Below the pieces are notes generated by a model. The model was given only the letters and a program-made list of their open reading frames with translations, ran no database searches and was not told the DNA's origin. This document shows positions 5,238-42,212 of a stretch of 64,000 nucleotides of DNA, piece by piece (within the stretch, counting starts at the first letter, position 1; every line of letters begins with the position of its first letter). Origin of the DNA: a virus; IMG/VR virus record IMGVR_UViG_3300011271_000003, positions 34,805 to 98,804 of that record. The stretch is one strand, 5' to 3'. The translations under genes and the position numbers were made by a program.

Positions 5238-5497
5238 CAGAACGTCCTTCCTGAGTCAGTAATGCCGTCTGGTACTTCTACGCCTCGACACTCAGGCATC
5301 CTACAGAGGTCTCGTAGTTCTTCCTTCGTGGGGAATTGTTTGTTTTCTGCCGGCCAGCTCCAGGTAGCGGTATTGATTGTAATGCCGCAGGCTGTTTGAC
5401 GTCCGTCTGTCGGGTCAACCCGATGCCACCTCTTTGTGTGTGGCGACATCACATAGGTGCTGACCTTGCTCTTCTTACCGCCAAAGAGCTTCCTCAC
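5237..5497 (-). CDS. Hypothetical protein with conserved HRVD..CG motif, 86 residues
   Basis: GTG 5497 overlaps the TGA of the upstream gene (GTGA). The segment RWHRVDPTDGRQTACGITI followed by CRMPEC looks like the small Cys-containing proteins common in actinophages; metal binding is possible. Function unknown. Confidence 0.6.
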   Translation of the reverse strand: MRKLFGGKKSKVSTYVMSPHTKRWHRVDPTDGRQTACGITINTATWSWPAENKQFPTKEELRDLCRMPECRGVEVPDGITDSGRTF

Positions 5498-14378: not shown

Positions 14379-14807
14379 TTAATAGGACCCTCTGTAGTTA
14401 AGGTCGTTCAGGATCTCGTGAGCCCGTCCTGTCTTCGCCTTCTCGTCGTCCTGGGCCGCCAGGAGTGCTAGGTTGTCCCGGGCCGCCTGAGCCAGCCCTG
14501 AATGAGGTGATACCTGGTCGTAACGCTTGTCACTCATTCCGCCTGTACCCTTAGGCGGAATCGTCCCATCGGGATTGACTTGCCGAGCCCAGCGATTGCG
14601 GATCGGCTTCATCACTTCTCCGTTCGCCAGTCGCTCAGGCGGGAGGAACTCTGGACATCTGTCGTTCCTACACTCGTACAGTTCCACCGTTGTGCCTTGT
14701 GGAATCCCTGACATAGGTGAGACCTGAGCACGGCGCCGGTTAAGCATAATTCCCATCTCATTACACGATGGGCAGCGTCTGCTCTCTTCCTCCTGCGTGT
14801 CGGTCAT
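14379..14807 (-). CDS. Zinc-ribbon protein, 142 residues
   Basis: RRCPSCNEMGIMLNRRR and VELYECRNDRCPEFLPP form a four-Cys zinc ribbon (about residues 12-55). The rest is polar and Gln/Arg-rich with SGLAQAARDNLALLAAQDDE. Possibly a nucleic-acid binding adaptor; function unknown. Confidence 0.7.
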   Translation of the reverse strand: MTDTQEEESRRCPSCNEMGIMLNRRRAQVSPMSGIPQGTTVELYECRNDRCPEFLPPERLANGEVMKPIRNRWARQVNPDGTIPPKGTGGMSDKRYDQVSPHSGLAQAARDNLALLAAQDDEKAKTGRAHEILNDLNYRGSY

Positions 14808-15229
14808 CCTGTAGCCTCCAGACGCTCAAGTTTCGCCTCTACTGCCTGGAGGCGCTTGTTAATCTCTAGGAAGCGTTGCTCTAGCGCTCCCAGTCTGGTG
14901 CCTCGTACTTTCTGAGCCTTTGCGACCCTCATAAAGACGTCAATGTCTGGATCGTCGAGTAGCTCCCACCTGGATGCAGCGCTCCCACCTCCTCGGCTTA
15001 GCTGCTTGATACAGTTCATCTGTTCGAGTCGGTTCAGACATGAAGAATAGTAGGGCGTAGGTAGCTCGAGCTGTCTGAAGAGCTTAGTTGTGTGCCCCTC
15101 CCAGATGAAGGCGTGCCGCTGGTCCCCACCGTCTGGGATGTTAACGGGTATGGCCCCTGTCTTCATTGCTGCGAACACTCTGCAGACATGTTCGTAGAGT
15201 TTTGGTGGAGCGCTTCGCATTGCGGTCAT
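14804..15229 (-). CDS. Winged-helix-like protein with C-terminal coiled coil
   Basis: 141 residues. KLYEHVCRVFAAMKTGAIPV ... FRQLELPTPYYSSCLNRLEQ ... MNCIKQLSRGGGSAASRWEL reads like a winged helix with a beta wing, and residues 115-141 (LEQRFLEINKRLQAVEAKLE) are a coiled coil. Likely a DNA-binding regulator; by structure pattern only. Confidence 0.65.
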   Translation of the reverse strand: MTAMRSAPPKLYEHVCRVFAAMKTGAIPVNIPDGGDQRHAFIWEGHTTKLFRQLELPTPYYSSCLNRLEQMNCIKQLSRGGGSAASRWELLDDPDIDVFMRVAKAQKVRGTRLGALEQRFLEINKRLQAVEAKLERLEATG

Positions 15230-15441: not shown

Positions 15442-15682
15442 ACTCTGACCTCCGTTGTGTAACACAAAAATCTGCCAAAATATATACGCCATCCACCCTC
15501 AGCGTCACCTCACGACGCCTACACCCGTGGCCTCCCGCGGTCCTACAGAAGCTATTCACCTTCATCCTCATGTCAGAAGGACTGAGCAGGCTCTCTTTTT
15601 CGGCATCCGCTACTGTTAGTGTTCCTTCGACAAGCGGTCGTCGACTACGACGAGAGTTATCTGTGACCTGAAACACAGACAA
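15431..15682 (-). CDS. Doubtful hypothetical protein at the edge of the RNA region
   Basis: Open frame ending 11 bp inside the next start, from TTG 15682 or an internal ATG at 15571 (MRMKVNSFCRTAGGHGCRRR). No strong ribosome site is seen. Could instead be the 3' flank of the structured RNA. Confidence 0.3.
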   Translation of the reverse strand: MSVFQVTDNSRRSRRPLVEGTLTVADAEKESLLSPSDMRMKVNSFCRTAGGHGCRRREVTLRVDGVYILADFCVTQRRSEYDP

Positions 15683-15689
15683 TGACTGT

Positions 15690-16706
15690 TGTAACCGGCC
15701 GGTGAATGGGCCAGCGCTTCTGCAGGCGCTTCCTTGTACTGGTCTGGGTCCGATAGCTCACAGCGCCTTCACGTACACCATCGGACCCAGAAACTCCTAA
15801 GTGCCAGGGTGCCGCAGGGGTAGTGGTCACTAGTAACCAGCGCGCGTTACCCCTGCGACAGAGCGGAATCGAACCGTCCAGCATTACGATCTGCCCAAAT
15901 CTGTGTTGTTGTAAGTTCGGGCTCCGGGAGTCCTGTTCCTGGCCGGCTGACAACCGACCGTTACGGAACAGGACTCCCGTGAGGGTTTAGCCCGACGCGC
16001 TGTGCCCTGCACCTCGAAGAGGTGGACGCTCCCTCGCTATTCCTGGCCCCTTGCCAGTCACGGCTACTCACCAGGACTTTTGCGTCCAGCTCACAGCTCT
16101 AGGCACGTCGGCATCCGACACTTTCGTTCGGACCTCACTGCGAGCTGAACGTGGTGGCGCGCTTACCGTATCGTACCGTGCCATCTGTTAGCTGGCACGG
16201 GCATTTAAGGTAAGCGCGCTGTTTACGACCGGCTCCTCAGGGGCTCCTATACTTGCCGCTCGCGCGGGCCTTGCTGAGGACTTACCTGGTTGACCAGCGC
16301 CCGCCATCCCATTGGATGGCGGGCGTATCCAGTTCGAGGGTGGTCAGTGCCTACCGGTCCGTCTTCCCAGAGGGCGGTTCGGGTTCCCCACTCTCTGGGC
16401 GCTCCTTGTCACCGTACTAATCCGTCATGGGACGAGGAGCCTGTCTCTATTGAGTTGTCAAAAGTTATCGGCGGAGCTGCCCCAGCCACCGGCCTAAGGG
16501 TTTCCACGACAGCTCCGCCTTCGGCTCTCCGTCAGCTTTGATCGTGTGCCTGCTCTCAAGGAACTAGCATCGATCTCGAGCTTTTGGCGAACCTAGTCAG
16601 CGGTGGAAGTTTGACCTCCCACCGCCGTCGACCGGTCTCAGCGTGTCGGCGCTGGCCTTGTCGATCCGGCGCTCGGTCAGCGACACCCGACCTGCGTACC
16701 GGAGCG
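15690..16706 (-). ncRNA. Large structured RNA candidate: array of about ten distinct hairpins
   Basis: No gene is convincing on either strand over about 1 kb. Perfect stems, in order: 15744-15754/15780-15790 (11 bp), 15813-15822/15848-15857 (10), 15925-15939/15965-15979 (15), 16157-16167/16209-16219 (11, with an inner 8-bp stem at 16176-16200), 16299-16309/16314-16324 (11, 4-nt loop, flanked by TGACCA/TGGTCA), 16366-16372/16393-16399 (7), 16470-16479/16510-16519 (10), 16600-16606/16619-16625 (7), and an imperfect 12-13 bp stem at 16639-16690. The stems differ in sequence, so this is not a repeat array. A TTCGATT T-arm-like element lies at 15862-15880. Two tRNA-like elements precede it in the transcription direction. 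The setting matches large ornate phage RNAs such as GOLLD or ROOL; identity unproven. Confidence 0.6.
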
Positions 16707-16780
16707 TGGACCAGACGGGGTTCGAACCCGCGACTTTCCCGATGCTAGGCACGTCTGCCTAGACCCGCGCATACTGGCCC
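16707..16780 (-). tRNA. tRNA-like element, anticodon not assignable
   Basis: 74 nt with a 7-bp acceptor stem (GGGCCAG/CTGGTCC plus A) and a T arm GCGGG-TTCGAAC-CCCGT. The middle does not fold into a standard D and anticodon arm: a 6-bp hairpin CTAGGC/GCCTAG with a 6-nt loop lies where the D arm ends. Either a degenerate tRNA or a tRNA-like domain of the neighbouring RNA. Confidence 0.5.
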
Positions 16781-16785
16781 ATCCG

Positions 16786-16886
16786 TGGGTGGGAGGGATT
16801 TGAACCCTCGAGCAGTTTCGCTGGGAGCAGCGACCCCGCGATACTTCCCTAGTATCACCGAACGGCCTCTAGCGGCATACCACCCT
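16786..16886 (-). tRNA. tRNA-like gene with long variable arm (class II)
   Basis: About 100 nt: acceptor GGGTGG/CCACCC, D-stem-like GCCG/CGGT, anticodon stem GATAC/GTATC with 7-nt loop TAGGGAA, long variable stem TCGCTG/CAGCGA, T arm GAGGG-TTCAAAT-CCCTC. The long arm is typical of tRNA-Ser or -Leu, but position 33 is A instead of T and the anticodon (GGG as aligned) does not fit, so specificity is left open. Confidence 0.6.
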
Positions 16887-16934
16887 ACCACCTTACCGAC
16901 GAGAAGGGCATCAGCTCTTACCGTCGGAGGAGGT

Positions 16935-17525
16935 TTATTCAGCCTCGACGACCTCGGAGCCGTCGGTCACTTCGGCCTCTTCCTCCGCCTCGACCGGAAC
17001 GGTCCCTGGCACCTGCACAGCTGCCTTAGCCGTGGTCGTTCCGGAGGCCTTGGCTGCCTTCTCTGCGGCCTTAGCTGCCTTAGCGTCCGCCTTGGCCTGG
17101 TCACGCTCGCCCTTGCGACCCCACCAGGCTACGACCTCAGCGATCACGACGCCAGGCCGAGTGAGAGTAACGCCGTGCTCGCTGACCTGCGGCTCAGCGA
17201 AGGTGTTGCCCTCCGCGTCGTAGTGCTTGACGGGGAACGGGTCGTCCTTGCCCGGTGACTTCACGAAGCCGTACATGCGCTGCGGCTGGAAGTTCGCATC
17301 CACGAACGGTGCGGATGCGCCTTCCTCCTTGTGCGTCTTCAGCCAGTTCAGCGCCTCGATCGGAGTCGAGACACCTTCCGGCAGCTTGTGCTTCGTAGCC
17401 GGGTTCGTGGTACCTGAGGTCGGCTGCGCTGGGACCGCTTCGGTCCCAGCAACCTCCTGCCCGTTGGTAGCAGCTTCGGCCTGTGCTTCCTCGGCCGCCG
17501 GGGCCTCGGTCTGCATGTCAGTCAT
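16935..17525 (-). CDS. Ala-rich protein, conserved phage type
   Basis: 196 residues from ATG 17525 after AGAAAGGAAGAGGGACG. Acidic Ala-rich N-terminus, a central ordered part (STPIEALNWLKTHKEEGAS, RMYGFVKSPGKDDPFPVKHY, VTLTRPGVVIAEVVAWWGRK), then a Lys/Ala helix (AKADAKAAKAAEKAAKASG) and acidic tail. First gene of a unit with its own promoter and directly upstream of the RNA region. Function unknown. Confidence 0.75.
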   Translation of the reverse strand: MTDMQTEAPAAEEAQAEAATNGQEVAGTEAVPAQPTSGTTNPATKHKLPEGVSTPIEALNWLKTHKEEGASAPFVDANFQPQRMYGFVKSPGKDDPFPVKHYDAEGNTFAEPQVSEHGVTLTRPGVVIAEVVAWWGRKGERDQAKADAKAAKAAEKAAKASGTTTAKAAVQVPGTVPVEAEEEAEVTDGSEVVEAE

Positions 17526-17615: not shown

Positions 17616-17645
17616 ATTTTATCGCAGGCTCACTGGGGAAGGCAA
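17616..17645 (-). promoter_or_regulatory. Minus-strand promoter of the shared type
   Basis: TTGCCT (17640-17645) and TAAAAT (17616-17621) with 18 bp between, preceded by AAAAGAATCTCAAAAAACC. Same layout (CCCTTG..., 18 bp, AT-rich -10) as at 23.87, 35.34 and 40.30 kb. It would drive the 16935-17525 gene, the tRNA-like elements and the RNA region. Confidence 0.65.
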
Positions 17646-41783: not shown

Positions 41784-42212
41784 CAACTTAACAACTCAAT
41801 AGTGTGTTTGTGTGTGTTAAACGTTCTAGCTAGTTGTTGACGTCTCGTTCACGTATTGTGTTGCGAGCTCTGAGTAGTTGACTTTACTTCTTCCTGAACG
41901 ACCGTTCTTGCGGTTGTCGATTTCTTGTGTCAACCACTTGTTGAATGACTCACCATCGAACATCACTTTGATTCCATGACCCTTACCACCAGCAGCTTTG
42001 AACTGCTTGTAGTTCGATGCGATCGTTCCTGACTTCGCGTAACCATAGAATGGTTGTGGATCTAGCTCGACGTTGATGTGGTTCTTCGCAAACATGATGT
42101 TGGTGATCATCATCGCAGCGTAAGGTGTGAGATCTTGCATGTTGGTTCACTCATTTCTTTTGTTGAAGTTTTGTTTGATCTCACACAAACACACTATTGA
42201 GTTGTCAAGTTG
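41784..42212. repeat. 31-bp inverted repeats flanking the 41826-42140 gene
   Basis: 41784-41814 and 42182-42212 are inverted copies differing at one base. The core ACAACTCAATAGTGTGTTTG resembles the conserved element ahead of 23S rRNA genes in actinobacteria. The minus-strand copy upstream of the gene also reads TTGACA, a good -35. A shorter copy lies in the RNA region at 16447-16461. Confidence 0.8.
41826..42140 (-). CDS. DNA-binding-like protein, paralogue of the 39.6 kb gene
   Basis: 104 residues. LTPYAAMMITNIMFAKNHIN, LDPQPFYGYAKSGTIASNYK, MFDGESFNKWLTQEI, then GRSGRSKVNYSELATQYVNE. The divergent position at the strand switch fits a regulator of early/late transcription. A TATAAT at 42242-42247 may start it. 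Confidence 0.72.
   Translation of the reverse strand: MQDLTPYAAMMITNIMFAKNHINVELDPQPFYGYAKSGTIASNYKQFKAAGGKGHGIKVMFDGESFNKWLTQEIDNRKNGRSGRSKVNYSELATQYVNETSTTS

What the first reader, a model, noticed from the sequence alone, without database searches (positions are those of the whole stretch)
15690..16706. Kilobase of gene-free DNA folded into about ten unrelated strong hairpins
Nine perfect stems of 7-15 bp plus one imperfect stem follow each other with different sequences, so they are not a repeat family but parts of one structured molecule. Two tRNA-like elements lie at its 5' side and a promoter upstream. Size, neighbours and phage setting match the large ornate RNAs GOLLD and ROOL, whose roles are unknown. 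It may be such an RNA or a new class.
Basis: partly seen in the sequence, partly recalled or inferred. Interest (0 to 1): 0.88.

Follow-up and report, generated by a model that had tools for sequence, protein, structure and literature searches.

The report
Hairpin-rich phage RNA with tRNA-like elements
An uncultured phage carries about a kilobase of gene-free DNA that would fold into a long chain of strong RNA hairpins; it follows two tRNA-like elements and contains the "keep transcribing" signal bacteria use for ribosomal RNA, so it is probably a large non-coding phage RNA of no known family, but it changes so fast between phages that its function and shared structure remain unproven.

Summary
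Window 15690-16706 is non-coding (non-coding stretch 15493-16934) and has six perfect stems of 10 bp or more against 0.04 in shuffles. The minus strand folds 10.5 s.d. better than shuffles. Neighbouring genes run on the minus strand, so the RNA would read leftward: promoter, gene A1 (16935-17525), two tRNA-like elements without a normal anticodon arm, the hairpin chain, gene A2. No Rfam family matches; GOLLD and ROOL models give nothing. New here: (1) the RNA contains an rRNA-leader boxA (16445-16462), conserved at the same place in the closest relative, L005; the same motif precedes 16S rRNA in 27 bacterial genomes, at 61-71 nt in all but one. (2) The A1-to-wHTH interval is a hotspot in about 37 phage contigs; 15 carry tRNA-like elements (30 in all, 0.08 expected), many with the anticodon arm replaced by unrelated hairpins. 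(3) Apart from boxA the RNAs cannot be aligned even where A1 is 56% identical, so covariation is untestable and a conserved ornate RNA class is not shown. Best reading: a phage-specific long structured RNA, transcribed with host boxA antitermination, probably cut out at the tRNA-like elements; its function is only inferred.

The parts
17616..17645 (-). promoter-like site TTGCCT-18-TAAAAT before gene A1
   Evidence: scan; a similar TTGNNN-17/19-TA(T/A)AAT site lies 71-143 nt before A1 in 9 of 12 syntenic phages checked
16935..17525 (-). gene A1 (196 aa, unknown function; conserved core PQxxYxxIKN...PFP with an Ala/Lys-rich tail); first gene of the unit
   Evidence: ORF, strong codon score, homologs in about 37 IMG/VR phages; no Pfam hit, no relative in 50,697 isolate phage records
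16785..16884 (-). tRNA-like element 1: cloverleaf with 6-bp acceptor, D-arm, arm with 5-nt loop, long variable arm, 5-bp T-arm with TTCAAAT loop, A73; serine-type outline without a normal anticodon loop
   Evidence: fold with z = -2.9; pair search; ARAGORN finds nothing
16706..16780 (-). tRNA-like element 2: acceptor 7/7 bp with G3:U70 and A73, T-arm 5/5 bp with TTCGAAC loop, anticodon arm replaced by a 7-bp hairpin CTAGGCA-GACG-TGCCTAG
   Evidence: Rfam tRNA model 26.2 bits, E = 1.3e-4, just under the cut-off of 29; folds (the T-arm form is 0.2 kcal/mol above the MFE)
15690..16700 (-). hairpin chain, about 12 strong local stem-loops; proposed long structured RNA
   Evidence: stems, z = -10.5, non-coding
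16470..16519 (-). hairpin directly before boxA, 10 bp perfect
16445..16462 (-). rRNA-type boxA, TTTGACAACTCAATAGAG
   Evidence: same motif in L005 at the same place; 3 matches in the window versus 0.09 expected; in front of 16S rRNA in 27 bacterial genomes
16298..16325 (-). hairpin, 12 bp perfect, 4-nt loop
16157..16219 (-). hairpin, 11 bp perfect plus inner 10-bp stem
16083..16151 (-). hairpin, 12 WC plus 2 G-U pairs on the minus strand
15925..15979 (-). hairpin, 15 bp perfect, 25-nt loop with an inner stem
15810..15860 (-). hairpin, 12 WC + 1 G-U, 25-nt loop
15743..15791 (-). hairpin, 12 bp perfect, 25-nt loop
15226..15441 (-). gene A2 (71 aa), downstream border of the non-coding interval
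   Evidence: 44% identical to the syntenic L005 protein
14804..15229 (-). gene for a 141-aa protein, called wHTH here from its look (no Pfam hit), syntenic marker
   Evidence: alignment A4, 45 loci, no Pfam family
14379..14807 (-). gene A3, probably a zinc ribbon (CPxC pattern; no Pfam hit), syntenic marker
   Evidence: 54% identical to L005; no Pfam family

Best explanation
It is a long untranslated phage RNA read from the minus strand as the second part of the A1 transcription unit. Shown by sequence: the operon layout, two tRNA-like elements at its 5' side, an rRNA-type boxA inside it, absence of coding, and a run of local hairpins far beyond chance. Inferred: host NusB/S10 bind boxA so that RNA polymerase does not terminate on a long transcript that no ribosome covers (as in rrn leaders); host RNase P and tRNase Z cut at the tRNA-like elements, which keep just the acceptor and T-arm parts those enzymes read, and release the downstream RNA from the A1 mRNA; the hairpin chain then persists as a stable phage RNA in the infected cell. 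Its most likely job is structural or decoy-like (holding or titrating host factors, where fold matters more than sequence), in the same general setting as GOLLD and ROOL.
For: Hairpin excess and z = -10.5; consecutive 200-nt windows mostly at z -3 to -6, mean -3.2 over the interval, while the lowest-z spots elsewhere in the window are isolated. No coding signal. boxA: 17 of 18 bases shared with L005 in otherwise unalignable DNA; its identity as the rRNA-leader boxA is supported by its position before 16S in 27 genomes, mostly Nitrospira. tRNA-like elements: 30 in 15 syntenic gaps versus 0.075 in shuffles and 0 on the antisense strand; the G53-C61 pair, which the search did not demand as such, is present throughout the list; cloverleaves with enlarged anticodon arms. 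Promoter-like site before A1 also in related phages; no terminator-like site on the minus strand between A1 and the hairpins. Minus strand folds better than plus.
Against: No transcript data. Sequence, and probably fold, is not conserved: apart from boxA nothing aligns with L005 although A1 is 56% identical there, and L005 is less structured (whole-region z = -3.0; mean window z -0.56). Most syntenic phages lack boxA and many lack tRNA-like elements. The strand preference is slight: G-U versus A-C mismatches in helices 6:4. Processing at the tRNA-like elements is inference.
Confidence: 0.5

Rival explanations
1. An ornate, particle-forming RNA of the GOLLD/ROOL kind (a very divergent cousin), folding into a multi-branched tertiary structure and assembling into a cage.
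For: Size, phage host, tRNA-like neighbours; GOLLD and ROOL lie in phages near tRNA islands (PMC12286853).
Against: Rfam models give nothing; predicted fold is mostly local hairpins and the best long-range helix is no better than in shuffles; no conserved sequence domain between relatives.
Confidence: 0.12
2. A decaying tRNA array / mobile-gene hotspot: the interval collects tRNA genes and debris, and the hairpins are relics or unrelated small elements without function as one molecule.
For: Intervals range from 262 to 2455 bases and differ in content; some tRNA-like elements in relatives are ordinary tRNAs; rapid turnover.
Against: Decay would break stems, yet six are perfect over 10-15 bp and acceptor/T-arms are intact; terminators would carry U-tracts, absent behind these stems.
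Confidence: 0.2
3. The tRNA-like elements and hairpins are decoys for host defence or tRNA-acting toxins (soaking up nucleases or enzymes that recognise acceptor and T-arm or short duplexes).
For: Acceptor and T-arm kept while the anticodon arm is replaced by changing hairpins; rapid divergence suits an arms race.
Against: No defence target known; the same features suit RNA processing signals.
Confidence: 0.12
4. DNA-level element (packaging site, origin or recombination hotspot) whose inverted repeats act as cruciforms or protein sites.
For: Stems are nearly as good on the plus strand.
Against: boxA and tRNA-like elements are RNA signals, all on the sense strand; stems have no shared sequence as protein sites would.
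Confidence: 0.06

Closest known systems
GOLLD RNA (RF02032)
   Same: large, structured, phage-borne, near tRNAs, function unknown (PMC12286853)
   Different: no model match; no conserved 3' domain found; tRNA-like rather than true tRNA neighbours
ROOL RNA (RF03087)
   Same: size class (model of 574 positions), phages, near tRNA islands (PMC12286853)
   Different: no model match
rRNA leader boxA (Nus-factor antitermination)
   Same: TTTGACAACTNAATAGAG is found 61-71 nt before 16S in Nitrospira-type genomes
   Different: here it precedes a phage non-coding RNA, inside the transcript rather than at its start
tRNA / tmRNA tRNA-like domain
   Same: acceptor stem, T-arm, A73; element 2 has the G3:U70 pair used by AlaRS (established knowledge)
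   Different: anticodon arm replaced by hairpins; no tmRNA gene with tag frame found by ARAGORN

Membership tests
GOLLD | match to the Rfam covariance model | tested here: not met
GOLLD | conserved 3' domain shared between members | tested here: not met
   window and L005 share only boxA
GOLLD | phage/prophage location near tRNAs | tested here: met
   virus record, tRNA-like elements, though not true tRNAs
GOLLD | expression during lysis, multimeric particle | not testable with these tools
   needs RNA-seq and cryo-EM
ROOL | match to the Rfam covariance model | tested here: not met
   one search also silent but its control rang nowhere
ROOL | complex secondary structure with pseudoknots | tested here: inconclusive
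   only local hairpins beyond chance; long-range pairing at shuffle level; pseudoknots not testable without homologs
functional tRNA | score over the tRNA model's cut-off / ARAGORN call | tested here: not met
   26.2 bits vs 29; ARAGORN none
tmRNA | model match and tag peptide frame | tested here: not met
   15.9 bits vs 47; ARAGORN none
rRNA-type boxA | same motif in rRNA leaders before 16S | tested here: met
   27 of 80 loci have a recognisable 16S start behind the motif, mostly Nitrospira
rRNA-type boxA | binding of NusB/S10 and antitermination activity | not testable with these tools
   needs reporter and binding assays

The most novel reading that the evidence does not exclude
A new kind of phage RNA locus: a rapidly evolving long structured RNA made with rRNA-style boxA antitermination and punctuated by anticodon-less tRNA-like elements used as processing signals or decoys, occupying a fixed slot between A1 and A2/wHTH in a large group of uncultured phages.
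Probability: 0.3. Interest if true: 0.82.

Novelty: new variant of a known kind. Interest (0 to 1): 0.6.

Why it matters
Large phage RNAs such as GOLLD and ROOL have no known function. A locus where a similar-sized RNA carries an rRNA boxA and tRNA-like elements gives concrete, testable ideas of how such RNAs are made (antitermination, processing by tRNA enzymes), and the syntenic hotspot supplies dozens of phages in which to look for them. The anticodon-less tRNA-like arrays, mostly invisible to ARAGORN and often below the tRNA cut-off, are probably missed in routine phage annotation.

Tried and rejected
GOLLD, ROOL and every other Rfam family. The tmRNA matches are only the acceptor/T-arm of the tRNA-like elements. 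A third tRNA-like element at 15854-15895 was dropped (fold z = -0.3). A leader-trailer helix 16494-16476/15715-15697 was dropped (score 37.5 versus shuffle 33.8 +/- 3.5). Direct homologs: none meaningful in isolate phages by DNA or protein, none in 84,980 genomes for A1. Covariation: no pair of relatives with alignable RNA; contigs whose intervals do align are near-identical copies. Coding through the stems: rejected. Some literature searches found nothing usable.

Full report
WHAT IS THERE. The window is bases 34805-98804 of a 98,804-base IMG/VR virus record. It has terminase, portal, protease and major head protein genes; its portal is about 26% identical to those of Arthrobacter and Gordonia phages. 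Genes around 15.7-16.7 kb all run on the minus strand, so the RNA, if any, reads leftward.

THE OBSERVATION. Six perfect stems of at least 10 bp lie in 15690-16706; shuffled copies have 0.04 on average. Three further perfect 7-bp stems and two imperfect ones bring the count to about eleven. The minus strand folds at -502 kcal/mol against -410 +/- 8.7 in shuffles (z = -10.5; plus strand -9.4). Consecutive 200-nt windows across the interval average z = -3.2, whereas the other very low-z places in the window are isolated. The stems are unrelated in sequence. Three neighbouring stems (15743-15791, 15810-15860, 15925-15979) each have a loop of exactly 25 nt; I have no explanation. No ORF in the interval has a coding score.

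BOXA. Comparing with the closest relative, L005, the only clearly shared sequence in the non-coding interval is TTTGACAACT(C/A)AATAGAG. Scanning one genome per species for 84,980 species found the motif in 94 stretches, many of them Nitrospira; of the 80 fetched, 27 had a recognisable 16S rRNA start behind it, 61-71 nt downstream in all but one. It is therefore taken as the rRNA-leader boxA. Nus-factor binding to boxA and protection from Rho is established for E. coli rRNA and other targets (PMC5725501, PMC4807359). Two weaker copies lie at 41787-41804 (+) and 42192-42209 (-). The motif also turned up in viral contigs with tRNAs or untranslated-looking leaders behind it (L010, L015, L017, L021), so its use by phages may be wider than this locus; a motif of 17 fixed bases also gives chance matches in collections of this size, as several of the 94 and 16 hits plainly are.

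TRNA-LIKE ELEMENTS. Two lie between A1 and the hairpins. Element 2 scores 26.2 bits with the tRNA model (cut-off 29); element 1 folds into a serine-type cloverleaf. ARAGORN sees neither. In 37 syntenic intervals, a search for acceptor plus T-arm finds 30 elements in 15 loci, 0.075 in shuffles, none antisense. Some are ordinary tRNAs, but others carry the anticodon arm as a long hairpin, e.g. L045 6527-6638 and L074 4660-4800. Most are followed by A-C-G instead of CCA.

SYNTENY. A1 - interval - (A2) - wHTH - A3 recurs across the group. The A1-to-wHTH interval is 262-2455 bases, and its content differs even where A1 is 75-80% identical in DNA. L033 carries a gene of the DUF7873 family in this stretch, and L024 a gene of similar length at that place. 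The slot is thus conserved, the RNA is not.

INTERPRETATION. Shown: non-coding, hairpin-rich, sense-strand tRNA-like elements, rRNA-type boxA, a promoter-like site before A1 that related phages also have. Inferred: antitermination, processing by RNase P/tRNase Z, and a structural or decoy role. The GOLLD/ROOL comparison stands as an analogy of setting only; membership was tested and not met. Because no relative can be aligned, whether this is a conserved RNA or one of many independent insertions in a hotspot is open, and that keeps the confidence near one half.

Noticed in passing
L033:1090-1165: Permuted tRNA-like element: the 3' half (CACTGATGTCGGTTCGAGTCCGACTCGGGGAGCCA) comes before the 5' half (TCCCCGATAGCTCAATGGCTAGAGC), 4 nt apart, with complementary acceptor halves, as in circularly permuted tmRNA genes (read by eye).
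   Followed up: partly
L065:5256-5329 and 5415-5487: Two tRNAs with anticodon CTA (ARAGORN 'Pyl'), i.e. possible amber suppressors, in a syntenic phage.
   Followed up: no
window:41787-41804 (+) and 42192-42209 (-): Two further boxA-like motifs (CTT(A/G)ACAACTCAATAGTG), facing each other across a small gene near the point where gene orientation switches.
   Followed up: partly
L037:4417-4492; L074:3749-3825: ARAGORN reports tRNAs with four-base anticodons (aatc, acca).
   Followed up: no
L021:1-4000: tRNA array with boxA before tRNA-Asp, followed by an untranslated-looking segment closed by ATTCTGAGAGG/CCTCTCAGAAT, and a CyVA-1 RNA hit at 294-370.
   Followed up: no
L045:6640-7010: About 370 nt of non-coding DNA after a tRNA-like element, ending in a hairpin and T-run; possibly another long RNA.
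   Followed up: partly
window:15743-15979: Three successive perfect or near-perfect stems (12, 12, 15 bp) each with a loop of exactly 25 nt.
   Followed up: no
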